NCBI GenBank assembly: GCA_019722365.1
Contig: JADFUC010002313.1
Location: 186,001 to 250,000, forward strand
DNA length: 64,000 nucleotides
Direction: 5' to 3'
Source: Lithospermum erythrorhizon
Taxonomy: Eukaryota > Streptophyta > Magnoliopsida > Boraginales > Boraginaceae
Shown here: in pieces, positions 7,351 through 32,470 of the stretch
How the letters are laid out: the number at the start of each line of letters is the position of its first letter
Position numbering within the stretch: the stretch's first letter is position 1
Notes under the pieces: generated by a model
The model's input: the letters and a program-made list of their open reading frames with translations, nothing else
Database searches by the model: none
Told to the model about the DNA's origin: nothing
Made by a program: the position numbers and the translations under genes

Positions 7351-7352
7351 TT

Positions 7353-7690
7353 ATCAAAGTAAAAATAATTGAAATTGATTTATGCAATATAAAATATAAT
7401 ATATTGAAAAAAATAATCACTACGCCGAGTCACGATTCACTGATTAACATCGGTACAAAAACAATGGCCTATCAAGTAAAAATAATTGAAATTGATTTGT
7501 GCAATGTAAAATATAATATATTGAAAAAGAATAATGAAATGCGCCGATGCCAATTTCTTGATTAGCATCGGCTACAAAAACAAATTCAACATCAAAGTAA
7601 AAATAATTGAAATTGATTTATCACAGTGGCAAATATAATATATTGAAAAAGAATATCTTCTACTCGAGTCAATTTCACAAAGTGCTTGTC
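7353..7690. repeat. ~119-bp tandem repeat, about three copies
   Basis: Units start at 7353, 7471 and 7591 (spacing 118 and 120). Each opens with ATCAA(A)GTAAAAATAATTG, continues through AAATATAATATATTGAAAAA and closes with a GC-richer segment. The second unit contains a perfect 8-bp hairpin, GCCGATGC ... GCATCGGC (about 7543-7573). The opening phrase resembles the outer end of the adjacent long-TIR element (ATCGAAATAAAAATATTTG near 7774), so the array looks like multiplied copies of that terminal sequence. Confidence 0.8.
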
Positions 7691-11418: not shown

Positions 11419-14400
11419 ATGGAGAGATTGGGTTCAGAAGGAGGAGGAGCAGCAATGGAATCGAGGGAGGATTTATGCATGGACCTTGACCCTCCATTTA
11501 AGGAGAGTTTAGCTACACCCGATGATTGGAGAAAGGCGCTTAACAGGGTTGTACCTGCCGTAGTGGTGCTACGTACCACCGCGTGCCGCGCCTTCGATAC
11601 GGAGGCGGCTGGAGCGAGCTACGCTACAGGGTTTGTGGTGGATAAACGCCGCGGGATTATTCTCACTAATCGACATGTTGTTAAGCCTGGTGAGTTAGTC
11701 GGGGGAGATCTCGTCTCGTCTCGTTTGGTGTGTCAATTCGTGACGTATTAATGTTAATGGGAGTGTGATAAGTGTGGGTGGATTGAGGGTGAGGTGATTG
11801 TCGGGTTTAGTGGCGGAAACAGAAATTTTATATTGGACGGACAGATTCTACTCTCGTCTCATTTGGTGTGTCAATTCGTGACATATTAATATTAATGAGA
11901 GCTTGACAAGTGTGATGATTAAAAAAAAAATATGGACAGTGTGTTAACATCTTATATCATTTTGACCTTTGTCCCTGTGTCAGGATCCGAAACAGAGGTT
12001 TATACTGGTTATTGTGTTTGTGGTGATACATGGAAGGCGAAATGCGCTTTTTGGTAGTGGATGTGATCGGTGGCAGGACCAATTTTTTTATATTGGTGCC
12101 GAAAGAATTGAAATGAGAAAAAGAAAAACAAGGCAAAATATAAAAATTTAGGGGGCGAATGGAATATTTTTTGAGTAAATGTACACAAAAATTAATTTCT
12201 CAATAGTAGAAGTTAGTAATTTTTTTTTTAGTATTTTCTATATTTGTTTTAAATATTGACTTGATGATTTTGATACTCCATCCATCACTGAAAGAAAGAT
12301 TGTCGGATTTTGGATTTCAATGATTTGATTTCTCAATATTGAACTCAAGCATTTTGAATATGTTGTATGGTGGTAAATGTAACAAAATATAGTTTTTTCA
12401 ACCCTTTTTACTATTAACATGATAAATTTAATTCGAGTCAAAGTTTTGTGTTAATTAAGCAAGTTTGTTAATTTAATCATTGAAAAAACAAACTGGATGA
12501 CTTTTTGAGGATGGAGCTAATAGCTTAGTAATATGGAATAGAATTTCTAATGATTGGTGATTGTTCTAATATAGGACCTGTGGTGGCAGAAGCTATGTTT
12601 GTTAATCGTGAAGAGATTCCAGTATATCCGATATACAGAGACCCGGTGAGGTTTCTTTTGATGATTCTTTGATGCCGCTACAATGGTTCTGCTTTATGGA
12701 ATATATGCTAAAGTGGTTCCTTTTTGTGGAGTATAAAAGCAGATAAGAGGTTGCACACGAAAAGTGCCACAAAAAAGAATATTGATATTCAACTTGGGTT
12801 TTAGTAAAACATTACAAGTTAGTTATGTCAGGTTGTTGCATCTCATGAATTACGGAGTATTATTTTTTTTATTTTGTTTTTATTTTTTTCTTCAATACAC
12901 TAGTGACAAGGTCATTTGCTTTGATTGAGTAGTCTTGTGCTCAATAAATATTATTATTTTTGAAGGACCAGTAAGGTATCTCGATTTGTATAATACTATA
13001 ATCATTGAAGTTAGCTTATCCAAGTCCGGAGCCATTTTTAAGCATTTCAATATTCTTTGAAACTTTGAAATGTATAATACATGCTGAGTTAGTCTGAACT
13101 TTCTGTTGAATAGATTCATGATTTTGGTTTCTTCCGGTATGATCCTGAAGCTATCCAATTCCTGAACTATGAGGAAATTCCGCTTGCGCCTGAGGCTGCA
13201 TCTGTTGGGCTGGAAATTAGGGTTGTTGGCAATGACAGTGGAGAGAAGGTGTGCAATATGTTATCTTTTATTTGACAAGTTATTCTAAATATTAGGAAGC
13301 CTTGAATTTTTTGTTTGTCGTGTCTATTTCTTATGGATATGCAGGCTCAATGTAATTGATGGAGTTCTCTACTCTCAGAAAGATTGGATGTTATTTGCAA
13401 AATTGATACCTGAAGATGAATTAAGAAATCTATGTTTTCTTGCATTCTTTGACGTGTGGACCAACATCACCAATTGAATATTGTTGTATCAAATATTTTT
13501 ATATAGGAGCAGAGTAATAGAGCATATATGAAGTTGTCATTCTGGAGATGTTACCGAAGATGCTACTCTAGACATAGCTTAATATTAAGGCAGCATTTAG
13601 TTACTTGCCAGTACATTATATGAAAGTCCAAATCTATTACCTGTTTGCCTTACTTTAATGTGATTACTTCTAATATATAGTTACTCTGCACAGATATATT
13701 GTCAGTTTCTTCTTTGGTGTCATGTTGCATATGTAGTTTTTCCTCGCCAAATCTATATAATCTTATCCATATTGAGTGATCAATTTGCTCTCGGACGTGG
13801 GGGCACATATGATAATGCCTGACTGGAATTGTTTAAATTTGTAGGTCTCTATCTTGGCTGGCACCATTGCTCGACTGGATAGAGATGCTCCTCATTATAA
13901 AAAGTACGCATATTCCATCTCTTTGATCCTATTTTATGCATTTCACATGGAATGGCTAATTGAAAATTAGACTAAGGTACTAGTCCTAGTTAGGCCATAG
14001 TTCTGGAAGTATTAACTAGTCTTCTTATGGTCGAAATAGAACTTAAGTATGGTAAAATTGTCTAATCTCTTTATCAATTTCAAATATATTTTACCTCTGT
14101 AAAATCATGTTTATGTTTTGACCGCATAACATTAGAATTCTGGATTTATTATTGTAGTCATTTTCCACTGTTGGATGTCATCCAAGCTCTCTCACATAAG
14201 ATTCTCCTAATTATTTTACATCCTGTTCTGATAAGTGTTCCTTGCTTCCCCATCCCTCTTTGCTATGGTGATATACTATACCAGCTTCACATTGTTTATG
14301 TTAATATTTTTGAATTGATATGTGACACTGAAGAAAGCTGCACCATTTCAGATTTCCATGACCACTTTCCTAATAAGATCTAAATTGTTGTGCTCTATTA

Positions 14401-17400
14401 TATGTACGTGATCTAAACTAGAGTCATTAGCCGTTTCATAATTTCAATGATTTAGGTTCCACATCTTACATAAAAATTTCAACTAAGTTTTCCAATGTCT
14501 ATTACTATCGTAATAGAGTGTATTTATTATAATTTCTTGTGGACAAACTGGTATTTCTGTTCTGTTGTCTAGCAGTACATCTTTCAACTCCAGGGACATC
14601 TTGTTGATGATCGGTTTCCTTGATGCAGGGATGGTTACAATGACTTCAATACATTCTATATGCAAGTAAGAAATATAATATTGGATTCTTTTAATGTAGA
14701 AACTGCAATAATGCTACTTTTTGGAGTTGATGTGATCATGTTGTTTATAATTGGTTTTAACTTCTTCTATTGTCTTGCTATGTTCAGAATTTTTTTTATA
14801 GTATTACAAACATGTTCTTTTAAGACTCAGTTTTCATATATTTGGAACTGGAAATTTACAACCTGATTCTATAAAATAATGAGATCTCCATGTGGCATCA
14901 GATAATGGTGGTAAAGATGGGGATGCTCCAATTTTTCAATGGTTTTTTTTGTCATTTACCTAGTATTTGCTTGCACTTTATATTCATCTTCGCATTGCAC
15001 TAAACTTGATATGTGGGATGAGATTAAATTTGTTAAATAAACAGCTTTTTAAAGAAAATGAGGTGCCCTTTGGATGCCATGTCTGAAGTTTATGCTGGAA
15101 TTATCATATTGGAACTTAGTTGTTCTGTTTCTTTTGCCATGCTTCATATCATTCTTATTACTCAATTACAGGCAGCTTCTGGAACCAAGGGTGGCTCAAG
15201 TGGGTCCCCTGTAATTGACTGGCAAGGTAGAGCAGTTGCTTTAAATGCAGGAAGTAAATCATCAAGTGCTTCAGCTTTTTTTCTACCTTTAGAACGTGTG
15301 AGTAACCAATCATTTCCCGACATTTATGTGCTATGTCCTACGGAGTATAATTTTTCTTTTTCTAGACAAGTAATTGTTTATATTGTTGAATGCCATCAAT
15401 AATTTTTATTATTTTGTTCCCAGATACAAAGCAATCTTAGCAAACATAAGAACTTACTGTACTCATCATTAAGTTTATAAGTGTTTTAATAAATAACAAC
15501 TCATGGTGGGTATTTATGTTTTAGACAAAAAAAGTGAAAGTGCGTATCGTGTGTTAAGAATCGAAATTAAAATGCCCAAAAAACCAATTGGTTATAGATG
15601 GATAAAGCCCAGGACCTTATTAATACACCCGGAAGGTCTTAATCAACCAATGTCGGACTGGGTTCGCAACACTATGCTTAACAATCTTAGGAACATTTAG
15701 ATTCAGGTCATTGCCAGTTTAAGCCTTAGGGAGTTAGATTTTCCTTGGATTGCAAAATGCGAAATTTTAGAGAATGAGTTGCGCTCAATCCGGCCCCTCT
15801 TTAGGCTGAAAGCCTCTTCCCGAGGCGATGGAACATCATGTTGCAAAATGCTTTGTATGTCAGTGACAGGATTTAGAAGTTCGTGCAGTGAATAATTTCT
15901 TGTTTATAATAATTAAGTCCAATGTAGCATGCTTATAATTTTTTAAATTCTTTCTCAATTTTAAAAAGTTCACTTTATGTTTCTGCAAGTTGAGAGTTGA
16001 GACCGTTATCAATTAGTCTAGTATTTTATTCCATGAATGTGACTAATATTTGCATTAATCTGGTTCCAGGTTGTGAGGGCATTAAAGTATCTACAAGAAG
16101 CACGAGATTCTTCTGAAAATAAATGGAAGGCGGTCAGCATTCCTCGTGGTACTCTGCAGGTTTGTTTTGTTCATGACAGTGCTTAAATGTTGCACCGCTT
16201 GAGTTATCTGTATAGTGGGTGGGGTTTTTTTGGCCCTTTGTTTTATCGTACAAGAAATTTCATGCTTTAATAGTGTTTTGGATTCCTCTGTACCATCATT
16301 TTCCATATATAGGCAAGGAAGGAAACATATGATCTCCATTTCTATTACGTGAATTCATGATATCGATTTGGATTGGATTGAGATGAGTACCAATATTTCT
16401 CGTTCCTTCCGAGCTATAATAATTTTTTCCTTAATTGATGTTTATGGGCACTCTGCCACATGTTTATGTTGCAGGTCACTTTTCTTCATAAGGGCTATGA
16501 TGAGACTCGTCGGCTTGGCCTCCGGACTGAGACAGAACAGGTAAATATAATTTGGTCTGTTGCTACCTTGTTATGTTGGAACATAAACTTAAGACTGAGG
16601 TTGTTTATTAAATGTATTAGCTGGTGCGTGATGCATCTCCGCCAGGGGAAACTGGAATGCTTGTTGTTGATTCTGTGGTGAGTATAATCCAACTTTCTCT
16701 AGGCTTTATTTTGCTTCTAGCATCTAAATATGCGGATATTTTTTCCTCTGAATTGGCTGCAGGTTCCAGGTGGTCCTGCATATAGTCATCTAGAGCCAGG
16801 TGACGTGCTTGTGCACATAAACGGAGAGGTATATCATTTAAGATGTGGAGTGTACATTTGTTGCACCTACCATTTTGAAGTCCAAAAGCACGCCTACAGA
16901 TCCAAATTATTTCTGACGACTGTTCATCTAAAACTCTATGATATATTATATTAGATAGGAACAAACATTTGTGTTCTGCAAATATGTGGTTACCTTAATT
17001 TTATGTCTTATATTACTTTTGTGGCAATGATGATTCTGAATCATGCATCTTCTGGCAATCTTTCTGCCTACCGTATTAGCCTTTTCTGTTTATGTTTGTT
17101 TCTGAATTTTGGAACGCTGATGTAGGTCATTACACAATTCCTGCGAATGGAGACACTATTTGATGACAGCGTCAATAAAGCAATTGAGCTCCAAATTGAA
17201 AGGGGTGGTGCTCCTTTGACTGTCAACCTGATGGTAGGTTTATAAGTTGTCTTCAAGATTTTCCGTGCTAGTTTGTCCCTCAACAATTTGCTCTTGTTAC
17301 ATTCGGCTTCTGCTAGTACTTAGAGATGCTTCAAAATAGATACCTTTCAGGCTGCTCTTCGGTTTTGTGTGAGTATGTTATTCATTGGTACTATATGTTT

Positions 17401-20400
17401 ATGCTCGGACACGTCCAGAGAAATGGTCACTTTGAGTAAATAAGTAACAGCACGTTGAAATTTAAAGGGGTGGTGCTCCTTTGACTGTCAACCTGATGGT
17501 AGGTTTTTAAGTTGTCTTCAAGATTTTCCGTGCTAGTTTGTCCCTCAACAATTTGCTCTTGTTACATTCGGCTTCTGCTAGTACTTAGAGATGCTTCAAA
17601 ATAGACACCTTTCAGGCTGCTCTTCGGTTTTCTGTGTATGTGTGAGTATGTTATTCATCGGTACTATATGTTTATGCTTGGACACGTCCTGAGAAATGGT
17701 CTCTTTGAGTAAATAAGTAACAGCACTCTTGGACACGTCCAGAGAAATGGTCTCTTTGAGTAAATAAGTAACAGCACGTTGAATTTAGAACCTCCCTGTT
17801 TATCTCCTTTTATCTCTTTGTTTCAAGATCAATGGGGTGTAAATTCATGTGTAAGCATTCTTATGATCCCTTTCTGGCCCTATGGATAGGATGTGGAGGA
17901 TTCAATGCAAATACATGTGGCGGTATTCTCAAGTCTTTTTTTATATGTTGGCCTATGGAAATAAATGTTATAGTTTGCTATTCGCGTATCGTCCCTTCAA
18001 ACCTATTTTTAGATTTCTGAATAAGTTAACATATAAGGCAATAAACTACTACTCCCTCCGTATCAAAATAGTTGATTGTTTACAATTTTACTTTTTCACA
18101 ATAGTTGATTGTTTACAATTTTAATATACTTTTTTACAATTCAATGTAGCTTTTTACATTTAGAGTAAAAGCAACTTTACAATCACGTGTAGTTTTTTAA
18201 CGTCAGCAATAAACTTCGTTAAACAATCATCTATTTTGAAACAGAGGGAGTATTTGGGTAGCCAACTGCATGGATGCATTACTGGGTAAATCTCCCTTGG
18301 GAGAAGCCAAGCATGCAAATCGTCCCTTCAAACCTATTTTGAGATTTCTGAAATTTCTGTTCTTATGTGCTGGATCTTTAGACCTGGATGCTATTTGGAG
18401 TTACTTTTAGCTACCGATTTTTTGTTCTATTAGATGAAGTTTTCTGGTTAAACTGAATAAAACATATCCACTCAAGCTTCTCCTGAAGTGAGAATGAATG
18501 AATTGTTAGGGTTGTTCATGACTTGTATTTGTTGGTATCTCCATCTCTGTCTCATATCTTGGTGTCACTCCAGGTTCAGGATTTGCATTCTATAACACCT
18601 GACCATTTCCTGGAAGTTAGTGGTGCAGTGATACATCCGTTGTCTTACCAGCAGGTTGGTTTAGTTGAAAAAGAAAGGCAAGGATGTGAATTTTATAGTG
18701 GCCAGGAAGTACTAAATCTGATAGAAAATTGTCATTCACCTGATTAAATAAAAACCTGACAAAACTAAAAGAAATTGTGCAGCTAAATGGAAAAATGATA
18801 TGGTTTCTCTTAACAGAGTTTTTATTATCGCAGGCTAGGAATTTTCGTTTTCAATGTGGTCTTGTCTATGTTGCAGAACCTGGGTATGCACATCCCCTAT
18901 TTTTCTTCCCTTTTTATAGCAACAGGTGGCTTATTTGATATAGTGGTGCTGATACGATCATATTTAATAATATTGCATATTGTTGTGTGGGTTCCTTTAT
19001 GTACTTTGTGTAGGTATATGGCTTGGATATTCTTCTAAGTATTTCTTGAATGCTAATCTTAGGTACATGCTCTTCAGAGCTGGCATTCCTCGCCATGCCA
19101 TCATTAAAAAAGTTTCAGATGTGGATATATCTTCCCTTGAAGACTTCATAACTGTTTTCTCTAAGTTGTCCAGAGGTGCACGTGTCCCTTTAGAGTATAT
19201 AAGCTACATAGATCGTCATCGGAGAAAGGTATCTATACTTTGTTCCAGATTGCTTAGTGTTCGTCTATGCTTTGTGGCTCACTTGTTGATGGTGCTATTA
19301 CCTGCAGTCTGTCCTGGTTACAGTTGACCGCCATGAATGGTATGCTCCTCCCCAAATATACACCCGTGTTGATTGTTCAGGTTTATGGACTTCCAAATTA
19401 GCTCTGGCCCCCAATTGTCCCAATTTATCATCTGGTATTGGTCCTGTTGGAAATGCTCAAGCTCCAGGTAATAGTAGAGTTGGGGCTACTGCTGGGGAGG
19501 AGAGTCCAATGGAACAAATAAATCAATATGATAATGCAGAGGTGAGCCATGGTGTTTCTAGTATGGAAACTAGCTATGATCCTGTTGCTGATGAACACAT
19601 GTCTCATGATGAGTCTGATCTGGGAGCAAAGAAACGGCGGTTGGAGGATGATTTGTCAACTAATGGCTCTATCGCAGAGCAACCTTTACAGGAACCTAAC
19701 GGCTGTCAACTGGAAGGCGGAGGAACTACGGATACTGCAGTTCCGGGAGACTACAATGGTGCAGTATCTACAGCCTCTAGTGCATCAATTGCTGAGCGTG
19801 AGCTAGAGCCTGCTCTTGTGATGTTTGAGGTGACATTGCCTTGGACTTCTGTCTTTCTGCTCATGCATAAAGAATCAATTCATTTTGTTGTCTGTAGGAG
19901 TGGAGTTGTGTGGCAGTGGACTTGTTTAAGATTTTTTGTATCATCTCTTATTTACTTATGTTAGCTGCATTCTTTATAAATGTTCTCATGTGCTGATTCA
20001 CACAGTGTGGTTGTACGTGATATTTGAATTCCTTTATTAGAGATGTGAAATATATACGACGTAGATACAGGAGTTGCGTTTTAACATGAACCAGCTTTGA
20101 TGTGGTGGAATCAGATTCTTCAGATAGTTGTTAGGTTTCATTTGTTTGTAACTGGCACTTCTAAACACCGGTTTGGCATACACACAAATCTCTATTTAGG
20201 CCATGGTCATTTTACACTCAGAGTACATCTTCAAGAAGTATGAGTGCTTATCATTTAAGCATATATGTGATGTAGTGTTAAGTTCTTTGGAGTTCCCTGA
20301 GACCATCTTTGCTTGAATTAAATTGCAGGTTCATGTGCCATCGTCATGTATGCTTGACGGTGTCCATGCACAACATTTCTTTGGAACTGGAGTTATAATA

Positions 20401-23400
20401 TATCATTCTCAGACAATGGGATTGGTTGCTGTTGACAAAAATACAGTTGCAGTTGCTGCATCAGATGTGATGCTTTCTTTTGCCGCTTTCCCAATTGAAA
20501 TTTCTGCTGAGGTCAATTCTTGAGCTGACTGACTTTCACCAATTTTCTGAGCACACAGTTCTCAAGCAAATTTTGTTTCTGCAGGTGGTTTTTCTTCATC
20601 CTGTCCACAATTTTGCTCTTGTTGCATATAATCCTGCAGCACTGGGAGCTGTTGGTGCTTCTGCTGTCCGTCCTGCTAAACTTCTTCCAGGTTTTTAATT
20701 ATTCTTTCGTTAGAGTACTTTTTTTCTGCATTGAGATAGTAAACAAATCCATAAAATGGTAAATATGGGAGCTTCAAAGAGTTCCAAATTGGGTCATGAA
20801 CTGTATGTCATTCAAAGTATTGAATAGCGAGAGAGCGGTATAGTGATGTAGCGGACGGAATGCCATATAGCAGACTGCATAGTTGTAGCGAGCGTGACTA
20901 CAGGCGCTTTAACTAGCGACATGCACTTTTGGACTTTTTAACTTAAGAGGGCTCCTTTGTATGGCCTTTTCCCCGTTACTGAAAAATACAGTCCATTTTA
21001 AAATATTGTCCATTAGGAGGGAAGACATGTTTCTAGTGTTAATGATACGAACCAAGTCCAATAGAAATATTCTAGAAGATCAAGTCAACTATTTAGTTTT
21101 TTACCGTCATATAACTATCTGTTAGTTATTTCATGCATTACTAGGTTAGTCCTAGAATTCTTCTATGATGGGTTCATGTAGTGGTAGTAGTGGGTCAGTA
21201 GATAACTATTGTCTTAGTATTTAAATGTCATCCTTTTCAATTGTAAGGCTATTCAGAATTCATTGTTAATATATCAAAAAATTTCGGAGATCCTCCTATC
21301 TATTCCTGTTTGTGAGATTCTCTCAAACAATGGTCTTATCATTTGGTACTCGGAGCTATTCGATCGAGATGGTGAACACAAGAAATTCCACCAACAACCC
21401 ACCACCAGCCCACTACAAACAGTCATCTACCTTCCAGTAACGACCATTCACATACACCTCCACTAAACACCTCTATAAATAACCTTTTACCTTCCCCGCC
21501 ACAACCAACTCCTAATACATATACTCGTCTACCCATATAACCACCTAATAACATTCTGCATGATCTTACTGTTGCAATTCAAGCCTTATCTGTCCAAGTT
21601 TCGGCCATGTCAACACAGCCCCAACAACCTCTGAACATTGACGATAACCCTAAAAGTTCCCACCGAGGCACAACAAGGGTGTGTTCTTATGACCGCGGTC
21701 GTCCACAAGGGTGGGATAAGCAGGATGAAGAGGACAACTCTAGAAGTTTCCAGCTTCTTGGGCAACCGCGGGCCAAAATTGATTTTCCCAAGTTCAATGG
21801 TGGAGATCCACGAGGATGGGTATTGAAAGCAGAAAAGTATTTTCGTTATTTCCAGATTCCGAACGAAATGAAGGTTGAGGTGGCAACGATGCATTTGGAA
21901 GGCGATGCCCTTGATCTTTATGCTTGGATCAATGGTGAAGATGAGATTTTACTTTAGAAAGAATTGGTCAATTTCAAAACCCAGATGAGTTTCTGTGCTC
22001 TTAAACAGACCGGCACGATCAAAGAGTATTGCCAAGAATTTGCACGACGGGTGGCAATGGTAAAAGATTGGCCGGACCATTGTTTATTGGGGTGTTTCTT
22101 ACTGGCCTGAAAGATGAACTGAAAACTGAAGTTCGCATCCACAAACCTCGTATTGTTTTCAAAGCAACAAGCTTGACACTAGAGTTTGAGGCCAAAGTTG
22201 GCCTAGCAAGAAACTTGAACCTTTCAAGAGTTAAAGCTCTACTCAATATAATTCCTCTCAATCAACCATCCCATACAACCCACCCTGTCCAACCATAATC
22301 TCTGCCACTACACCCACCTCCACCGCCCTATCTACCATTCCGAAAGCTCACACCCCGCCGTTGTCAAAATCATGGGAAAGCGAACGGCAACAAAGGAAGG
22401 ACAAGGGTTCGTGTTACTGTTGTGGGGCTTCTTTTTCGTCATCGGTGCAAATCTGCCCTCTCCGTCATGAATATCGGGACAGCACCAACAACCTCATCTT
22501 TGAGGTAGCAGATGAAGAAGCCGGGTTGTATGAACATGAGGCGGCAAATGATAGTGCAACAACAATCCCTTACTTTCTTCTTCTGTCTTGAGAACAAGTC
22601 GAGTTTTCAGGGAGTGTATTGATACGAACCAAGTCCAATAGAAATATTATAAAAGATCAAGTCAACTATTTAGTTTTTTACAGTCATATAATTATCTGTT
22701 AATTATTTCATGCATTATTAGATTAGTCCTAGTGGTAGTAGTGGGTCAGTAGATAACTGTTGTCTTAGTATTTAAATGTCATCCTTTTCAATTGTAAGGC
22801 TATCCAGAATTCATTGTTAATATATCAGGAAACTTGGATATCTTACTATCCATTCCTGTTTGTGAGATTCTCTCAAACAGTGGTCTTATCAGTTAATCTC
22901 CTCTAATCTTAGAGACTTATTTTCTATCAATTGGAATGTCTACAGTCCAGCGTGTAGCTGATATACTTCAATTCATTTTGCATTTCTTTTTTATATTGGA
23001 GTTGTGATGAATTGCTGGAATTAAACTTGTTAAAATTCTTTTATTTGCAAGGATCTTAGTGGAATCTTTTATTTTTATTTCAATCTTTTCTGCAGAGCCT
23101 GCTCTTCGACGTGGAGAGTCAGTCTATCTCGTTGGCTTGAGTCGCAGCCTACAAGCAACTTCAAGGAAGTCCATTGTTACAAATCCTTGTGCTGCTTTAA
23201 ACATAGGGTCTGCTGATTGTCCTCGGTATAGAGCAATCAACATGGAAGTAATTGAGTTGGATACAGGTAGGTGGGTCAAAACAGCCTAGTGCTTGCTGGC
23301 CTATGCTTATTCTTTAGTCCATATATTTCATATTTTCTTTTCTTTTTTGGTATAGATTCTTTTTTCAGTAAATTCTGTAACATTGGTCTGTTCATGATAA

Positions 23401-25859
23401 TTCAGATTTTGGTAGTACATTTTCTGGTGTGCTAGCTGATGAACAAGGAAGAGTTCAAGCAATATGGGGAAGCTTCTCAACCCAGGTTTCTGTTTTTCAA
23501 TCTGACTTGTTATCTACATAATCTGGAAATGCTCTCTAACATGTCTTATGACGTCCAGCTGAAATATGGTGGCAGCTCATCTGAAGATCATCAATTCGTC
23601 CGAGGGCTTCCGATCAATACAGTCAGCCAGATTCTTGAAAAAATTGTATCTGGTGTTGATGGCCTTCCTCTTCTTATTAATGGAATTAAGAGGTCAATGC
23701 CACTTATAAGAAGTTTAGAAGTTGAACTTTACCCTATGTTGCTTTCCAAAGCTCGAAGTTTTGGTCTCAGTGATGTCTGGATCAAGGTATACAATTTATG
23801 GAGGTGTCTCTTTTTTGTCATTGATGTATCCTATGCTCCACATGCCCTATATTGATTTAATCACAAAAGAATAATCGATTCCTAGGTTCCGGGAAGAATG
23901 GATTGTTGTGTTGATTGTACTCCTGTACCTTGAAGTTACCTTGGGTATTGTCGTTTAGGGAACCACCAATTTTGTATCATGAATATCATATGTTCCTACA
24001 GATATTCATGATACTAACAAATAATACCTTTGATTGAAGTTACATGTCTTAGATTCTCTCACTTTTCTGAGCACCGCATATCTTCATATTTTCTTTGGTC
24101 AATGATTTTTACACTCCATTATGTGATAATGACACTCCACTTTAGTCTAAAAATTGATGAAAAATAACAAAGAAGTAGAGTGTTATAATCAAATTTTGGA
24201 GTGTAAAAATCATTAGCCTTTTCTTTTACTATGAAACAGTTAAATTTAAAATTGCTGCTTTAACTTAAAACAAGGGTAATTTTTGTAAGTTATATTATAT
24301 TTGGAGTTAACTGTTCTATTCTTTTCCGGATGGAGAAACTATATCTCCAGGTCAATTTAGGTTTTAATAGGCACTAATGGTAAATCACTTCTTATAGAAC
24401 AAAAAAGCAACATCTGCTCTTTCTTGAGACTTGCATTCTTCTTCCTGTTTCTTGAGCTTTCAAACCTAACAGTAGGTTTCATTTAGATAATAGGACAAAG
24501 GTTTGGTGACACTGTGAGACTGTAATGCCCAACTTGAAGTGCTTAAAGCTATGTTCTGTTTTTTGGGTTTAAGCTTATTGTACTATTTCTTGATGGTGAT
24601 ATGAAATATATAACAGTTCACTCTCTAGATGCTCTATCTGTTTCACCAATTTCAATGTTCATCTGCTGAAGTTCTTGTCAGTAACATACTTATTTTTCCT
24701 TGCGGTTCTTAATTACAGGCACTTTTGAGGAAAGATCCTGTTAGACGTCAGGTTTTGAGAGTGAAAGGTTGCTTAGCTGGGTCAAAAGCTGAAAATTTGT
24801 TGGAACATAATGATATGCTCTTGGCAATTAATAAAGAGCCAGTTACATGCTTCCGTGATATAGAAGATGCTTGCCAGGCATTAGACAAGAGTGGTGACAT
24901 TGATGGGAAACTTCATGTGACTATATTACGTCAGGTGAGACATTATTGATTTTCTTCTTCCGGAGAATGATCATGAACTATGTTGGAGCTACATTTTTGT
25001 GTTAAAGAAATATACTCTTATCAGAGTAATTGTTTATGTATTCATTACATAATTTCTCAGGGGCGTGAAATTGAACTATATGTGGGAACGGACGTAAGGG
25101 ATGGGTACGGAACCACTCACGTGATCAACTGGTGTGGTAGTATTGTACAGGATCCTCACCCAGCTGTACGTGCGCTTGGGTTTCTTCCCAGTGAAGGCCA
25201 TGGTGTATACGTGGCTAGGTAATACTACATATTAGAATCAATGACCTTGACATGTGGGTTTGTAGCATTTGTCAGAATCATGTTCTCCGACTTCAACTTG
25301 CCAGAAAGGTCAAACAATTATTTCCTTGTTTGCTAAATTCTAATGGAATCTTACTTACTGATTCAGATGGTGTCATGGGAGTCCAGTTCATAGATATGGT
25401 CTCTATGCTCTTCAATGGATTGTTGAAGTTAATGGGAAACCAACCCCTGATTTGGATGCCTTCGTTAGTGCGACAAAGGTTTGAACCTTCACCTATAAGG
25501 AAACACTCAACTGTATATGGCTGGGTTGGCATGATAATCAATATTTATCAGTTTGTGTTACAAGTTATTTTGAAGCTTCAATCTTGATGGATAAGTTGAT
25601 TTATACCTGCTGCATGCAAGTGATTTGTATGGGTTTGCTCAGCTTTTTTTCCTTCATGTTCTAATGGTGCAATTCCTTCCAGGAAATTAAACATGGAGAG
25701 TTTGTACGGATTAGAACTGTCCACTTAAATGGGAAGCCTCGAGTGCTAACCTTGAAGCAGGATTTGCACTACTGGCCAACATGGGAATTGAGATTTAATC
25801 CTGAAACTGCAGAGTGGCGCCGCAATATAATCAAAGGGCTGGATATCAATGATTTGTGA
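11419..25859 (+). CDS. DEG7: DEG7 / Do-like 7 serine protease
   Basis: Trypsin-fold DegP/HtrA protease; in Arabidopsis, Deg7 acts on the stromal side of thylakoids in photosystem II repair. Exons read here: 11419-11689, 12575-12645, 13114-13248, 13845-13903, 14629-14665, 15172-15297, 16070-16159, 16475-16540, 16621-16677, 16763-16828, 17126-17233, 18574-18654, 18834-18883, 19063-19228, 19308-19829, 20329-20511, 20585-20690, 23096-23266, 23406-23485, 23559-23786, 24719-24934, 25061-25218, 25367-25478, 25683-25859. All junctions are GT-AG and keep frame, giving 1,111 aa against about 1,097 in Arabidopsis. Active-site His86 lies in LTNRHVV and Ser201 in GGSSGSPV; the Asp is probably D124 (RYDPEAI). 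PDZ-like regions follow at ~286-375 and ~390-470, then an acidic linker (~500-625), the degenerate second protease domain (~636-890) and C-terminal PDZ-like regions (~885-965, ~990-1090). No frame damage. Introns 1, 6, 11, 17 and 20 carry duplications or transposons. Confidence 0.95.
11707..11913. repeat. Direct duplication in DEG7 intron 1
   Basis: A ~68-bp phrase around GGTGTGTCAATTCGTGACGT followed by a ATTAATGTTAATG(G)GAG motif occurs at about 11707-11775 and again at 11847-11913 (GGTGTGTCAATTCGTGACAT), a period of about 140 bp. It lies wholly inside intron 1 and does not touch a splice site. Confidence 0.75.
15552..15683. mobile_element. Possible solo LTR / TRIM fragment in DEG7 intron 6
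   Basis: The 132-bp segment starts TGTTAAG and ends CTTAACA, a 7-bp inverted TG...CA terminus as in LTRs. Inside are phrases typical of short plant LTR elements (CCAATTGGTTATAGATGG, CAACCAATGTCGGACTGG). No matching flanking duplication was found, so a truncated or old copy is possible. The following ~150 bp (to about 15860) is also unlike its AT-rich surroundings and unexplained. Confidence 0.4.
17199..17787. repeat. 265-bp tandem duplication across the DEG7 exon 11/intron 11 border
   Basis: Copy A (17199-17463) starts in exon 11 at AAAGGGGTGGTGCTCC and runs through the donor site into intron 11. Copy B (from 17464) repeats it almost exactly, including the last ~35 coding bases and the GTAGGT donor. 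Copy B has no acceptor of its own, so the parent exon should still be used. A further nested duplication of about 50 bp (GGACACGTCC(A/T)GAGAAATGG ... AACAGCAC) extends the end of copy B. Confidence 0.9.
17988..18351. repeat. 33-bp direct repeat flanking the Stowaway MITE
   Basis: ATCGTCCCTTCAAACCTATT followed by TTTAGATTTCTGA lies at 17988-18020, and nearly the same sequence (TTGAGATTTCTGA at its end) at about 18319-18351. The two copies bracket the MITE but are far longer than its TA target duplication, so they come from a separate local duplication of about 330 bp. Confidence 0.8.
18052..18250. mobile_element. Stowaway MITE in DEG7 intron 11
   Basis: Left end CTCCCTCCGTATCAAAATAG and right end CTATTTTGAAACAGAGGGAG are inverted complements, flanked by TA on both sides (18050-18051 and 18251-18252). 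Length is 199 bp with no coding capacity. This is the classical Stowaway (Tc1/mariner-derived) structure. It contains an internal direct repeat of ATAGTTGATTGTTTACAATT (near 18067 and 18101). Confidence 0.9.
21043..21341 (+). repeat. 5' LTR of the gag-only element
   Basis: Starts TGATA and ends TATCA. Compared with the 3' LTR it has scattered substitutions and an extra ~26-bp block (GAATTCTTCTATGATGGGTT region near 21157-21182), so the insertion is not recent. Confidence 0.88.
21607..22591 (+). pseudogene. Ty3/gypsy-type gag-like sequence, disrupted
   Basis: The segment 21607-21957 encodes a capsid-like gag domain ([20 protein letters not shown] ... [11 protein letters not shown]), typical of plant Ty3/gypsy retrotransposons. 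It is broken by an in-frame TAG near 21955. Homology continues ([20 protein letters not shown]) until a frame change near 22080, then [15 protein letters not shown] ... to about 22298. A zinc-knuckle-like stretch near 22396-22470 (CYCCG ... ICPLRH) lacks the usual His spacing. The product is therefore non-functional as read. Confidence 0.8.
22620..22891 (+). repeat. 3' LTR of the gag-only element
   Basis: Same termini as the 5' LTR and followed directly by the target duplicate GTTAA. It lacks the ~26-bp block present in the 5' LTR. Confidence 0.88.
24097..24218. mobile_element. MITE with 8-bp target duplication in DEG7 intron 20
   Basis: The 122-bp element has ~22-bp inverted termini: GGTCAATGATTTTTACACTC on the left and the complement of GAGTGTAAAAATCATTAGCC on the right. 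TTTTCTTT flanks it on both sides (24089-24096 and 24219-24226). An 8-bp duplication suggests the hAT superfamily, though the GG start is not the usual CAG/TAG of hAT elements. The partial DEG7 copy at 28.06 kb has the uninterrupted site (ATATTTTCTTTTACCATG), which confirms the boundaries. Confidence 0.85.
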
Positions 25860-25994
25860 ACCTAAACAGAGGCTAGGGCATCATGATGCGCCATTCGTGG
25901 ATATGATCACTCCATTGCAATTGATAATCAGTAGGAAGAGTGAATATCTGGATTTTTGAACCTAGAGATGGTTACAGTTATGCATTGAGAAACT

Positions 25995-26979
25995 ATGAAG
26001 GATGCATTTGTTGTCAGAATTGATTTGCTATTCTACAGGATAGGGAAATCCTAGAACTGAAAAGAGGTGTTAGGTTCAATCCGATGATTAATGAGAACAT
26101 GTAAGATGTGAATTCCGTGATTGTTTACTATAGCTTTTCTTGTATAAAGTATTATATACTTTATTAAAGAGATTTCTGCTGAGGGAGAAATGTTAATTAA
26201 ATCATATATACTCCCTCCCCTAAAAGATTGTCACATTTTAATTTTTTAATAGTTGAACTTTTATCATAAATATTTTTGTTTGTGTTGTATAATATTTGAT
26301 GAAAAGAACTATATCAATATATGGAAAAATTTGAAATATATTTTTATAAATTATTATATAAAAATATAAACAAATATATCTACGGTTAAAGTTTAATTAT
26401 GTTTATTTTCTGCCTTAGACAATATGTTTCATTATAAGTACATGACAAAATAAGGTTTGAAATAATAACAATAACAAGTGTAGTCATTACATAACTATAT
26501 CATTGATCTCATTCTATCACAATAATTTTGCCAGAAGAATTGATTCACTATTAATTCATTTCATTCTTTATAAGTCATATAACATCCACAAGGAAATCAT
26601 AATTAAGTGAATAATGATGATTTCTTTGTCGTTTGACACTTGATTCTATATTTTGTGATCACTTTATTTAATTATATGTCACTTACGATCACTTTGTTTC
26701 TTACCTTTTTTATTTCATTTTAATTCGTTATTACTTCATGTAGAAGGAACTTGAGAGAAAGAAAATAAATTGAACACAGATATGAATGTATGTACTTTTT
26801 ATGAAGTGACATCGAACAAATATATCCTGACTAACGAAGCATGTCAAACTATGCATGTTTACTTTAAACCAACATACTTGATATATGTAGTATATACCCA
26901 ATAGTCTTATTTGGCATTTTAAGCATATGCCAATGGGGGCTGATTTAACATAAAAAAATTGCTAAATAAAAGCAAAAAT
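25995..26979. other. Spacer between DEG7 and its partial copy
   Basis: It holds the DEG7 3' flank and about 1 kb of AT-rich sequence. A Stowaway-like left end (TACTCCCTCCCC, from about 26209) is followed by AT-rich sequence, but no clear right end was found. No coding exon could be supported. Confidence 0.55.
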
Positions 26980-29400
26980 TGGTAAATATGGGAGCTTCCA
27001 GGAGATCCAAATTGGGTCATGAACTGTATACGTCATTCAAAGTATTGAATAGCGAGAGATAGCGCTATAGTGATGTAACAGACTCAATGTCGCTACAAAA
27101 TGCCATCAGCAGACTGCATAGTTAGGCCATAGCTCTTTAACAGTGCTACAGGCGCTTTAACTAACGACATGCACTTTTGGACTTTTAGCAGAAACCCTTT
27201 GTGACCTTTTTCCCGATTCTGCAAAATACTCATTTAAATATAGTTTCCTTGGGAGGGAAGACATGTTTCTGTAGTGTTAATGTCACTAATGTAGAAAGGA
27301 ACTCATTTTCTGTCAATTACTTGAAATGTCTACAACGTGCAATAGCTGATAGTTGATCTACATTCCAAATTATTCAATTCATTTGCATTTCTTTTTTATT
27401 GTTGTCCTTCGGGATAGTTGCTGGAAAACTTATTAAAATTCTTTTATTTGCAAGGATGTTAGTATCTTTAATTTTTGTTCAAACTTTTTTCTGCAAGAGC
27501 CTGCTCTTCGACATGGAGAATACAAAGCAACTTCAAAGAGTCCATTATTTACAGATCGCGGTAACGCTTTATAAACATAAGGTGACAGTGCAATCCGCTA
27601 ATAATGTATGATTACAAAAGATTCAATGAAAGAACTTTCTAGTACGGGACTCTTAATAATAACCTGACTCTCTACAACTTTAAATTAATCTCAGTGGATG
27701 CAGTGAAGTTTATTTGAGTTTAACTCTTCTTCGTCTAGCGGGTGAGGAAAGAATGCGTCATGAAATTCCAGCAGTCCGGGATACACTTAGCCGTCGGACG
27801 AAAGTGTGGCCGTGTGAAAGCGATCATGGCTATTTCTGACGTCAGTCTGATTATTTGGAATTTATATGAAGGTGTTTTAAATCCCCAATGATTAAATCAC
27901 AAACAGGCATTAATTTGATTCTTAGGTTCAAACAATGGTTATTTGTGTTGATTAGCACTCCTTACCTTCAAGTTATCTTGATACCTTCAAGTGATATCTT
28001 TAGGTGAATACTCGACATCTTAGATTCTCTCACTTTTCTGAGCACCTCACATCTTCATATTTTCTTTTACCATGAAACAGTTAGATTTTAAAATTGCTGC
28101 CTGAACATAGAACAAAGAATTGTATGATTATATTATATTCTTTAGCAGGTTGATGTTCTATTCTTTTCCGGATGGAGAAACTATATACAAAGGTTTGGTG
28201 ACACCGTGGGACTGTAATACCCAACTTGAAGTGCTTAAAGCTATGTTCTGTGTTTTTGGGTTTAAGCTTATTGTAGTATTTCTTGATTGTGATACGAAAT
28301 ATATAACAGTTCACTCTCTAGACGCTCTATCTGTTACACCAATTTAATGTTATCTGCTGAAGTTCTTGTCAATATGCCCAATGCTTTCCTTGGGTTAATT
28401 ACAGGCGTTTAAGGAAGATCACCATTAGACGGGTTTTTGAGGGTGAAGGATGGCAACTGGGTCAAAAGCTGAAAATCTGTTGGAACATAATGATATGATT
28501 TTGGCAATTAATGAGAGCCGATTTTTGTCTTCTAGTATATAGTCTTTGCCAGGAATTAGACAAGAGTGGTGACATTGATGGGAAACTTCATGTGACTACA
28601 TTACGTCAGGTGAGACATTATTGATTTCTTCTTTCCAAGAATGATCATGAACTATGTTGGAGCTACATTTTTGTGTAATTGTTCTCAGGGGCGTGAAATT
28701 GAACTATATGTGGGAACAGACGTAAGGGGTGGGTATGATCGACTGGTGTGGTAGTACTATAGAGGAGCCTAACCCAGCTGTACGTGTAGGTTTCTTCCAT
28801 GGAAGACCATGAATTGTATACACTTTAGTTAGGTAATACTACATGTTAGAATCAATGACCTTGACATGTGGGTTTGTAGCATTTGGCAGAATCATATTCT
28901 CTGACTTTCCTTGTTAGCTAAATTCTAATAGAATTTTACTTACTGATTCAGATGGCGTCGTGCGAGTCAGAATATTCTCTGTTAACTTTCTTCAGTAGTT
29001 GTTAGAAGTAATGGAAACCAACCCCTGATCTGGACACCTTCGTTAGTGTCATAAAGGTATAAACCTCCACCTGCTGCATGCAAGTTATTCTGTATGGGTT
29101 TCCTTATCTTTTTTTCCTTTATCTTTTAATGATGCAATTCCTTCCAGGAAATTGAACATGGTGAGTTTGTCCAGATAAGAACTGTCTTCTTAAATTTGAA
29201 GCCTCCAGTGTTTACATTAAAGCAGGATTTGCACTACTTTCCAACATGGGAATTGAGATTTAATCCTCAAACTGCAGTGGCGTCATGATATAACAATTAA
29301 GGCTAGAAAAAGAGATGGTTTAACATAAATTCCCAGAGTGAATATTTGCATTTTGTAATGAGAGATGATGGTTGGTCATACATCAAAAACTATGCTGTAG
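26980..29400 (+). pseudogene. Partial tandem duplicate of the DEG7 3' half
   Basis: The block copies DEG7 from intron 17 (parent about 20754) to beyond the stop codon (parent about 25995). Matches follow in order: GGTAAATATGGGAGCTTC at 26980; exon 18 remnant at about 27499 (GAGCCTGCTCTTCGAC); intron 20 at 28000-28350; exon 21 at about 28405-28612; exon 22 at 28689; exon 23 at 28951; exon 24 at about 29149-29310. Many small indels break every exon (for example, the middle of the exon 21 copy is garbled and exon 22 loses a segment before GATCGACTGGTGTGG). Exons 19-20 are barely recognisable. Exons 1-17, with the whole active protease domain, are absent, so no protease can be made. It lacks both the gag-only LTR element and the 8-bp-TSD MITE of the parent introns. 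Confidence 0.9.
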
Positions 29401-30700
29401 AAATGTGGGCACTCTTTAGGTTAATTAAAGATGATAGGTTGTTGTGAAAATCTACGAGTTGATAGGTTGTTGTGGCGTCTCTAAGCTTTTCCTGCTGTGG
29501 CGTCGAAAATCTTTAAATTAATAAACTTTTTAAGATAATAAAAATTATCGATCCCAACCGTAATAAAGTCTTTAAATTAATACTCCATAAATTAATACAT
29601 TTCACTTTGTCAACATTATTATTATACTGAGTTTTTAAAGTAATTGTTGTCGGGTGATTTTTATCACGATTTGCAGAGTTCAATCCGTGTGATTGAAATA
29701 GAACATGTAAATATAAATCTTAAACAAGTATGTTATCGATAAGATTAGTCAAATATATCTGCCAAAGTTAGAAAATACATTTCAAACTCCATCATAAAGG
29801 TTTGAAGTACTCTATGTTGGACTAGGATTTGGTGGGGTGTGCCAGGCAGAGCAATAGTGCAACGCCCAAGCATACATGAAATCCAGATAGCAAACTTCAT
29901 CTGACAGATTTTCCCCCTTAAAAATTGAGTTAATATCATTGTATGACATTAGGTACATGCTCCGGATGGCCCGATAGAGCAGAATCTTTAAACGTCTTGC
30001 TTAAAGAAGGCCGAGAAAGGTATGAATTTTAAGACCGATGGACTTCCAAATTTATAGCACCTTCTATCAATTCATTGTCTTGGTTAAGCGATGTGGGATA
30101 TGAAAGTAACCTCAATCTTCATTCTTCTCCTCGAATCTTTGTCCTCGTAACAAAAGCAATGAACAAACCTTCTCTAATCATAAGACCCTCTCGAATAGTA
30201 GGCAAATAGTACTATGTACACCCTTCATCCCAAAAAGATTGTATAATTTTGAATTTTTCAAAATTTTAGAAATAATAATTCAATATGGAGTACTAAGTTA
30301 ATGTTGACATATTTAGCCAAATTACATGTAAGTGAATCAAACTGAAAATATTCCTAAACCCAAATAAAAAGTGTGAAACTAACTATCTTCGGCAAATAAA
30401 ATAAGCACAGAACAAAATAATAAGAGGAGTTGCTTCAATTGCTTTTGTGATTCATTGTTTTCCCTTTCTAACCAGAAGAAGAGGCACAAAGAGTAGAAAC
30501 TATTGAATCCAAGTTACTTTTAAGGAAAATGAAAATGTATCCTAGCTAATAACATAAACTGTATTTGTAATCCTGTTTTTTTTTCTAGTACAAAAATATA
30601 ATTACTCACAAGAATAACATATCTAAGTCAACTACTTTCTTTCTAGTCCATTCCTTCCTGACAAACACAATTTCTACTCCGACTCCTTCCTAAGAAAGCA
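29400..30700. other. Spacer between the DEG7 copy and the PPR gene
   Basis: No exon could be supported. Around 30080-30110 the phrase AAGCGATGTGGGATATG resembles the ends of short plant LTR elements, and near 30222 a Stowaway-like phrase (CCCTTCATCCCAAAAAGATT) occurs without a partner. A 64-codon open frame on the minus strand (29745-29939) has no recognisable domain. Confidence 0.5.
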
Positions 30701-30706
30701 AAGAAC

Positions 30707-32470
30707 CTATGCTAATATTTCGGAATATATTAAATTTGTTCCGCGATATTCATAACACTTCTCCTCGAAGAGTCCAAATAAATGATCTTTTAGTAAATGT
30801 CTTCCCACAATTTTTCCAATTGCCCAGAGTTTCTGCTCATATAAATCACTTATACCATCACATTGATGACAAGAACCAAGTGTTTCACATACTTGTTTTG
30901 CCCTTGGATGCAAGAAATCACCGACAAGAAATTCCTCGACAACTCCATTCACCTCAATGACACTGCAACCAGGTTGTTTCTTTGTTCTTGTATTCTCAAC
31001 CCGGTTTCTTACTCTCTTTGCTTCAACCTCCCATCCAGCTTCCTTATACATGTTATATGAAAGTACATGCATTCCGTAATCAGTCACTCCCATTTTAGTA
31101 AGTGCTCTCCAAATTCTGTCTCCAATATCAACATTCCCGTACGTTCTACATGAATTCAATAACGCTCCCCACACATTAGCATCCCCTCTACCAAATCCTC
31201 CCATTCTTTGTTCTATAAATTTCTCTGCTTCGGCTAACTTGCCAGATTTTGCTAACAGATCAACCACAGAGGCATAGTGTTCTAGCTTCGGTTCAATTGC
31301 AAATTCAATGCTCATTCTCTCAAAGAACTGAAGCCCCTTGTCGACTAATTTCATATGCGTACAAGCAGTAAGGATAGCAACAAACGTGGCCTCTGAAGGT
31401 TTGGTCCTACTCAATAACATCTTATCAAATAATTCAAGCGATTTCATTGAATGACCACTCAATGCAACACCAGCTATGATTGCATTCCACGCTCCACTGT
31501 CTTTATCTTTAATCCCCTCAAAAACTGATAATGCCAAATCAATGCAACCACATTTAGAGTACATGTCGACCAATGCCGTGGCCAATATGATGTTCCTTTC
31601 ATATCCACACCTCTTAGCATACTTATGAATCCAAACCCCCTGTGCCAGTGCTCCAAGATGTGCACAAGCCGTGAGAACGCTCACCAGAACCGATTCATTA
31701 GGCCTTACCCCATCTTCTTCCATTCTTCTATACAAACTCAACACCTCCTTAAAATCACTACTCCTCGAATAAGCTGCAATAATCGCACTCCACGAAATCA
31801 CATTCCTCTCACCCATCCCCTCAAACAAAGCCCTCGCACGTTCCACCTCCCCAACTTTCCCATACCCATCAATCATCGTGGTCCACAACACAACATCTGG
31901 TTCAGGAATTTCATCAAACACCTTCCGTGCCCCATCCATATCAAGATTCAATGAATAAAATTCAACCAACGCACTAGCAATAAACTGATCGCTACAAAAC
32001 CCCAATTCAACTAAATGGGCATGTACCAACAACCCCATTTTCTTCAAATCACAAGAAACCATCGAACAAGCCTTCAAAAGCGGCGTAAAAGTGTACTTAT
32101 TTGGCAAAAAACCTCTATTTGCCATCTCTTTATAGCATAAAATTGCAGATATTGCAAAATCTTGCTGCATAAATCCTCTGATCATGTTGTTGTACATGAA
32201 AGTGTTGTGGTATTGAATTTGTTGGAAAATGGCACGTGCGTAATTGAAGAAGGTGGGGTTGTTAGATGTGGCGGCGAAGGAGAGGACGGGGGCAAATGCG
32301 GAGGAGTTATGAGGGTGGTGGAGTTTGAGGATGTGGGCATGGATTTGTTTGAGATGTTTCAAAGTTGTGCATTTTATTACAAGGTTTGAGATGGTTATTT
32401 GTGTTTGGGTTGACATGTTTTTTGAATCATCCCAAGATGTTGGAATGAAGTCATAACATTCTTCCACCAT
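30707..32470 (-). CDS. PLS-class pentatricopeptide repeat protein with E/E+ tail
   Basis: Intronless frame of 587 aa. PPR proteins of this class bind organellar RNA and usually specify C-to-U editing sites in plastids or mitochondria. Alternating P, L and S repeats run from about residue 30 to 430: TFMYNNMIRGFMQQ, NKYTFTPLLKACS, QFIASALVEFYS, DVVLWTTMIDGYGKVGEVE, NVISWSAIIAAYSR, NIILATALVDMYSKCG, DSGAWNAIIAGVALSG. E and E+ motifs follow (ANVWGALLNSCRTYGN ... GCSVIEVNGVVEEFLVGDFLHP). There is no DYW deaminase domain, so a trans-acting DYW partner would be needed if it is an editing factor. The last ~55 residues after the HPRAKQ motif are unlike the usual short E+ end. Translation may start at residue 1 or at Met19 (MSTQTQ). 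No clear transit peptide can be called by eye. Site and target are unknown. Confidence 0.93.
   Translation of the reverse strand: MVEECYDFIPTSWDDSKNMSTQTQITISNLVIKCTTLKHLKQIHAHILKLHHPHNSSAFAPVLSFAATSNNPTFFNYARAIFQQIQYHNTFMYNNMIRGFMQQDFAISAILCYKEMANRGFLPNKYTFTPLLKACSMVSCDLKKMGLLVHAHLVELGFCSDQFIASALVEFYSLNLDMDGARKVFDEIPEPDVVLWTTMIDGYGKVGEVERARALFEGMGERNVISWSAIIAAYSRSSDFKEVLSLYRRMEEDGVRPNESVLVSVLTACAHLGALAQGVWIHKYAKRCGYERNIILATALVDMYSKCGCIDLALSVFEGIKDKDSGAWNAIIAGVALSGHSMKSLELFDKMLLSRTKPSEATFVAILTACTHMKLVDKGLQFFERMSIEFAIEPKLEHYASVVDLLAKSGKLAEAEKFIEQRMGGFGRGDANVWGALLNSCRTYGNVDIGDRIWRALTKMGVTDYGMHVLSYNMYKEAGWEVEAKRVRNRVENTRTKKQPGCSVIEVNGVVEEFLVGDFLHPRAKQVCETLGSCHQCDGISDLYEQKLWAIGKIVGRHLLKDHLFGLFEEKCYEYRGTNLIYSEILA

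What the first reader, a model, noticed from the sequence alone, without database searches (positions are those of the whole stretch)
20754..29400. Partial tandem duplication of DEG7 records the order of two transposon insertions
The decayed copy at 26980-29400 is collinear with the DEG7 intron 17-exon 24 region but lacks both the 1.85-kb LTR element and the 122-bp MITE. At the LTR site the copy reads AGTGTTAATGTC where the parent has GTTAA + element + GTTAA. At the MITE site it reads ATATTTTCTTTTACCATG where the parent has TTTTCTTT + element + TTTTCTTT. Both are clean empty sites, so the duplication predates both insertions (or, less likely, the copy came from another allele lacking them). 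This is a rare in-window molecular clock.
Basis: seen in the sequence. Interest (0 to 1): 0.75.

Follow-up and report, generated by a model that had tools for sequence, protein, structure and literature searches.

The report
Broken gene copy predating transposon insertions
Beside a plant protease gene lies a decayed copy of its last third that lacks two mobile elements sitting in the gene's introns, so the copying most likely came before both insertions; this is a neat but ordinary piece of genome history, and a poor clock.

Summary
The window is from Lithospermum erythrorhizon (Boraginaceae). It carries DEG7, with a short LTR element (21043-22891, TSD GTTAA) in intron 17 and a 122-bp MITE (24097-24218, 8-bp TSD) in intron 20. 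A decayed partial copy at 26963-29394 has a clean empty site for each. The copy's only long relative found in the 366-Mb assembly is this gene. The duplication therefore most likely predates both insertions.

Four corrections. (1) The copy does not order the two insertions relative to each other. (2) The copy is not free of mobile DNA: 27589-27873 is a truncated LTR fragment, standing where about 640 bp of the parent is missing; repeats also fill much of the gene-copy spacer. (3) Strict head-to-tail tandem structure is not shown. (4) The clock is poor. Intron divergence (K 0.079-0.133) exceeds LTR/LTR divergence (0.049-0.067) in 12 of 12 alignment settings, but bootstrap P is below 0.05 in only 8. 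Copy exons diverge more than introns, without a codon-position signal, so a symmetric clock is rejected (P 0.005-0.012).

Paralogous empty sites (RESites) are an established tool. This is a new member of a known kind, of low interest.

The parts
11419..25859 (+). DEG7 (protease Do-like 7) gene, start codon to stop; the parent of the copy
   Evidence: Stitched protein matches plant Do-like 7 proteases; last seven exons give 379 of 380 residues of the P0004 tail
20691..23095 (+).
   Evidence: Sequence and exon boundaries
21038..21042 (+). Left target-site duplication GTTAA
21043..22891 (+). LTR retrotransposon of 1849 bp without a recognised pol; gag-like frames broken by stops
   Evidence: Ends and LTR pair; reading frames; no Pfam domain above its cut-off in three pieces
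21043..21341 (+). 5' LTR
22620..22891 (+). 3' LTR, 26 bp shorter by one gap plus a 1-bp gap; K2P to 5' LTR 0.066
22892..22896 (+). Right target-site duplication GTTAA
24089..24096 (+). Left target-site duplication TTTTCTTT of the MITE
24097..24218 (+). MITE, 122 bp, terminal inverted repeats, in intron 20
   Evidence: Inverted match 24101-24214; family in the genome; TSD
24219..24226 (+). Right target-site duplication TTTTCTTT of the MITE
25998..26962 (.). Spacer between gene and copy; repeats at 26208-26400 (Stowaway-like, label recalled), 26400-26603 and 26649-26823
   Evidence: Genome search
26963..29394 (+). Decayed partial copy of DEG7, intron 17 to 3' UTR; 18 of 20 exonic indels shift the frame in the aligned parts
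27273..27284 (+). Empty site of the LTR element in the copy
28057..28074 (+). Empty site of the MITE in the copy
27589..27873 (-). LTR fragment, truncated at both ends, standing where about 640 bp of the parent (23210-23852) is missing
   Evidence: Repeat matches, ends of relatives, alignment, parent blocks

Best explanation
A DNA-level duplication copied the 3' third of DEG7 (from within intron 17 to the 3' UTR) to a place about 1 kb downstream in the same orientation. The copy had no promoter and no 5' exons and decayed as a pseudogene. Later, in the intact gene, a short non-autonomous LTR retrotransposon entered intron 17 and a MITE entered intron 20. Separately, the copy lost about 640 bp and gained an LTR fragment there, probably by break repair with filler DNA. 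Shown: both empty sites, both TSDs, no other long relative in this assembly, the lesions of the copy. Inferred: that the duplicated allele lacked the insertions because they had not yet happened; that introns prove a DNA-level and not an RNA-level copy; the break-repair step.
For: Introns are present in the copy and collinear. Both sites are clean empty sites with one TSD unit, and LTR elements do not excise precisely (established knowledge). The only long match of the copy in the genome is this gene; the 14 other places match the LTR fragment only. Intron divergence exceeds LTR divergence in 12 of 12 settings; transversions are lower in the LTR pair with Fisher P below 0.05 in 10 of 12. Of 191 fully aligned codons, 44 changed in the copy and 2 in the parent against outgroups, as expected of a dead copy. 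One deletion of the copy (parent 25495-25604) lies between two ACCT words (by eye), as end joining would leave.
Against: The divergence is not clock-like: exons diverge more than introns, codon positions are equal, the two-lineage expectation is rejected. In 4 of 12 settings the LTR and intron divergences are not separable (bootstrap P 0.09-0.26). The junctions do not fit a simple head-to-tail tandem. No outgroup genome of the region was available, so presence of the copy without the insertions in a relative is not shown.
Confidence: 0.83

Rival explanations
1. The copy came from another allele or an introgressed haplotype that lacked the insertions, after the insertions already existed elsewhere in the population.
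For: An empty site alone cannot exclude this. The bootstrap ranges of LTR and intron divergence overlap in some settings.
Against: Intron divergence is above LTR divergence in 12 of 12 settings, so the split of copy and gene looks at least as old as the insertion. The search of the assembly with the copy found no alternative haplotype of the locus. It needs two separate elements to be absent from the donor.
Confidence: 0.1
2. The copy is real, but a good part of its differences are uncorrected long-read errors, so parent/copy divergence is inflated and the duplication is younger than it looks.
For: The assembly is ONT reads at about 20-fold coverage joined with Illumina reads of another accession and polished. 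Transitions equal transversions in introns (60 to 68), indels are many (68 gap openings to 214 substitutions), there is no codon-position signal, exons differ more than introns. The repeat at 26205-26402 just upstream has about twice as many indel events per site against its family as the family members have among themselves (68 in 1649 against 162 in 7770).
Against: Changes are 1.7 to 2.2 times as frequent at G/C sites as at A/T sites in exons and non-exon columns under three scorings; uniform error would give equal rates. The LTR fragment inside the copy shows no excess of indels (63 in 1553 against 153 in 3880) and neither repeat has the longest branch in its tree (third of 11 and fourth of 7). 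Errors cannot remove two elements cleanly.
Confidence: 0.2
3. The copy was carried to its place by a transposon that captured part of the gene (Pack-MULE or Helitron type).
For: The copy is an incomplete gene piece next to repeats.
Against: No long inverted repeats bracket the copy; the eight pairs found in 25900-30800 are 18-32 nt and 72-89% complementary. Helitron ends were not searched for. The copy lies next to its own parent in the same orientation.
Confidence: 0.05

Closest known systems
[quoted passage not shown]
   Same: A paralogous stretch matches both flanks of an element and lacks the element
   Different: Here two elements and one neighbouring gene fragment are involved, and the paralogue is used to order events, not to prove mobility
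Maize p1/p2 cluster: gene duplicates with nested LTR elements, displaced gene pieces and filler DNA (PMC2686159, passages read)
   Same: Duplicated gene pieces, LTR elements with TSDs in a gene, filler DNA from break repair, dating by LTR divergence
   Different: Much larger and younger there (insertions 0.2-1.4 million years ago in the passages seen); here a single small copy, no dates given
TR-GAG type non-autonomous LTR elements (name and definition recalled; only a search listing seen)
   Same: Short element with an LTR pair, gag-like frames and no recognised pol
   Different: No gag domain reached Pfam's cut-off in three pieces, so membership is not shown

Membership tests
Paralogous empty site (RESite) | A sequence paralogous to both flanks of the element, continuous across the site | tested here: met
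   Both sites
Paralogous empty site (RESite) | Element absent without remains, one unit of the target-site duplication left | tested here: met
   GTTAA and TTTTCTTT once each; no element remains better than E 0.10
Duplicated (non-processed) pseudogene | Introns retained | tested here: met
   Intron blocks aligned
Duplicated (non-processed) pseudogene | Reading frame destroyed | tested here: met
   18 of 20 exonic indels are frameshifts; exons 18 (in part), 19 and 20 missing
Strict head-to-tail tandem duplication | Copy directly joined to the end of the first unit, second unit followed by the original flank | tested here: inconclusive
   Spacer of about 965 bp with repeats; no second spacer copy seen; downstream flank could not be searched in the genome
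Clock-like duplicate pair | Neutral sites diverge in both lineages, constrained sites of the parent give half as much | tested here: not met
   4-fold 15 of 88 against 0-fold 31 of 205; P 0.005-0.012 against the twofold expectation in three scorings; exons above introns in 12 of 12
LTR retrotransposon, non-autonomous | LTR pair, 5-bp TSD, TG...CA ends | tested here: met
LTR retrotransposon, non-autonomous | Gag domain recognised | tested here: inconclusive
   No Pfam family above its cut-off in three pieces; gag-like look of the frames is recalled
MITE of an 8-bp TSD family (hAT-like TSD length, superfamily not settled) | Terminal inverted repeats, no coding capacity, many copies, TSD of fixed length | tested here: met
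   40 places scored of 248 candidates; perfect 8-bp TSD in 16 of 30 loci, perfect 7-9 bp in 19 of 30 (offsets up to 3 bases allowed, no chance control)

The most novel reading that the evidence does not exclude
The dead copy mutates in an unusual way: exon-derived stretches change faster than intron-derived ones, with many small indels and few transitions, while the gene beside it has hardly changed even at silent sites. If reads confirm the sequence, this would be a side-by-side measurement of a large mutation-rate difference between an active gene body and its adjacent pseudogene.
Probability: 0.1. Interest if true: 0.5.

Novelty: new member of a known kind. Interest (0 to 1): 0.2.

Why it matters
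It gives a clear local history: duplication first, then two separate insertions into the working gene and a mobile fragment in the dead copy. It also warns that paralogue divergence and LTR divergence at one locus need not tick at the same rate, so empty sites should be trusted for order and not for dates.

Tried and rejected
Considered and rejected: chance similarity (787 bits against at most 35.6 in 200 shuffles). Assembly duplicate or haplotype contig: no other long match was found in the genome, and a duplicated contig piece would be expected to carry the insertions. Transposon capture: no long bracketing inverted repeats. Misalignment at gaps as the cause of the low transition/transversion ratio: the ratio stays near 1 in introns at 10 columns from any gap (21:21, 27:25 and 19:18).

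Led nowhere: Pfam on three pieces of the LTR element and on DEG7 exon 24 (two weak matches below cut-off). Paper searches on duplication plus empty site (five terms, 0 papers) and on mutation bias (six terms, 0 papers). One search (4 papers listed) gave the maize case; (DEG7 and photosystem II) was seen as a listing only. meant to compare several alignment scorings but a file-name clash left only the last one; one search replaces it. The flank downstream of the copy (29290-30700) and parent intron 20 (23786-24718) could not be searched in the genome because the machine was busy. Absolute dates are not given: no rate for this plant was looked up, and the clock fails.

Full report
What the window is. 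The stitched DEG7 protein matches plant Do-like 7 proteases; 7110 of 7995 scored candidates pass E 1e-20, and the best 120 were listed. P0004 from Lithospermum erythrorhizon, 98% identical over 78% of the query, lies on a contig of 1,229,861 bases, the length of the window's own contig C1787. The length of another contig, 314,306, equals the published N50 of that species' assembly (PMC7261806, section 5, read). The genome held here has 366,103,689 bases in 2391 contigs, against 367.4 Mb in 2465 contigs published. I take the window to be from that assembly.

The observation. Parent and copy are collinear in the blocks 20740-21044, 22967-23117, 23853-23943, 24047-24096, 24219-24344, 24495-25494 and 25605-25830, against the copy from 26963 to 29293. 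A weaker match reaches 25997/29394. The LTR element (21043-22891) has TG...CA ends and GTTAA on both sides; the MITE (24097-24218) has TTTTCTTT on both sides. The copy runs straight through both sites, and a permissive search finds no remains of either element in it (best E 0.10).

The elements in the genome. The 5' LTR has 15 matches including the element's own two; the best elsewhere is 82% identical. Two relatives with a recognisable LTR pair show 76% and 78% between their LTRs. So this looks like a small, old family, with the DEG7 element younger than the two relatives that can be compared. The MITE belongs to a larger family: 248 candidates, of which 40 were scored. Of 30 loci inspected, 16 have a perfect 8-bp TSD and 19 a perfect one of 7-9 bp (offsets of up to 3 bases allowed, no chance control). 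Its nearest relative among the 30 is at K 0.078, and its terminal branch in the 30-copy tree is 0.024.

Bases 27589-27873 of the copy match 14 other places in the genome. Of 13 relatives compared, 7 start at the same base, 27589. Of five relatives whose ends were printed, four share further sequence beyond the left end and four beyond the right end, so the piece is truncated at both sides; in L007 the left end lies next to what looks like a primer binding site (recalled knowledge), which makes it an LTR fragment. It stands where parent bases 23210-23852 (part of exon 18 to early intron 20) have no counterpart (widest scoring). In the spacer, 26208-26400 matches a large repeat family, and 26400-26603 and 26649-26823 each match another place (1948 candidates, 40 scored). 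Between parent bases 25494 and 25605 the copy has lost a stretch bounded by two ACCT words (by eye), typical of end joining (recalled).

Divergence. LTR/LTR K2P is 0.066 (13 transitions, 4 transversions, 272 columns). Parent/copy intron K is 0.079-0.133 over three scoring schemes and four distances from gaps, and exceeds the LTR value (0.049-0.067) in 12 of 12 settings; the settings are not independent. The bootstrap probability that the LTR value is the larger runs from 0.005 to 0.26 and is below 0.05 in 8 of 12. For transversions alone Fisher P is below 0.05 in 10 of 12; transversions matter because methylated elements gain extra transitions (recalled).

Why it is not a clock. If the gene is constrained and the copy is not, amino-acid-changing sites should diverge about half as much as silent sites and introns. 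Instead exons differ more than introns in 12 of 12 settings. The three codon positions differ equally (29 of 201, 31 of 206, 26 of 206). 4-fold sites (15 of 88) differ no more than 0-fold sites (31 of 205), rejecting the twofold expectation at P 0.005-0.012 in three scorings. Transitions about equal transversions in introns (60 to 68), and small indels are frequent: 68 gap openings for 214 substitutions. MITE pairs of the same assembly show a transition/transversion ratio of 2.4 and 0.09 indels per substitution, while diverged Stowaway-like and LTR-fragment relatives show ratios of about 1.2-1.35, so part of the difference may lie in element type and divergence. Heterogeneity along the copy is mild (chi-square P 0.048 over 24 bins).

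Could it be read error? The assembly joined ONT reads with Illumina reads of another accession and was polished. For error: the low transition ratio, the indels, the lack of codon signal, and the repeat at 26205-26402, which has about twice the indel events per site against its family (68 in 1649) that the family has internally (162 in 7770). Against: changes are 1.7 to 2.2 times as frequent at G/C as at A/T sites, in exons and outside, under three scorings (Fisher P 0.0000 2 to 0.006), where uniform error would give equal rates; and the LTR fragment inside the copy shows no excess of indels (63 in 1553 against 153 in 3880) nor the longest branch. I hold error to be a possible part of the divergence, not the cause of the copy.

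Placing the duplication. Of 379 codons of the last seven exons, 191 are fully aligned in the copy and 188 are not and were left out. Of the 191, 44 changed in the copy and 2 in the parent, judged by P0002 and 37 other plants, and 2 are ambiguous; in one of the two parent changes 37 outgroups agree with the parent, so it is doubtful. A stricter scoring gives 39 and 2 of 184. Two residues that differ from both P0002 and the majority are shared by parent and copy.

Order of events. Duplication first; then the LTR element and the MITE in the gene, and the LTR fragment in the copy, each on its own. LTR against MITE cannot be ordered: half the LTR K (0.033) and the MITE's terminal branch (0.024) are too close for 272 and 122 sites.

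Known or new. Paralogous empty sites are an established tool (PMC2213677, passages read). Duplicated gene pieces with dated LTR insertions and filler DNA are described at maize p1 (PMC2686159, passages read). For this locus itself I made no literature search beyond the L. erythrorhizon genome paper (abstract and sections 5, 7 and 15 read), so I do not claim that it is unreported.

Noticed in passing
11419-16500: The annotated DEG7 protein of this species (P0004, 853 aa) starts in the middle of the gene and lacks the N-terminal protease part, although the window carries the missing exons in good reading frame; the gene model looks truncated.
   Followed up: partly
26208-26823: The spacer between gene and copy holds a palindromic repeat of a large family (Stowaway-like, label recalled) that ends where two other repeats begin; probably nested insertions.
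   Followed up: partly
30213-30266: A 54-column stretch downstream of the copy is 74% identical to the left end of the repeat at 26205, perhaps another member of that family.
   Followed up: no
17193-17726 and 11714-11914: Direct repeats inside DEG7 introns, 94% and 89% identical.
   Followed up: no
51387-51916 and 7352-7655: Further local direct repeats, 70% and 84% identical.
   Followed up: no
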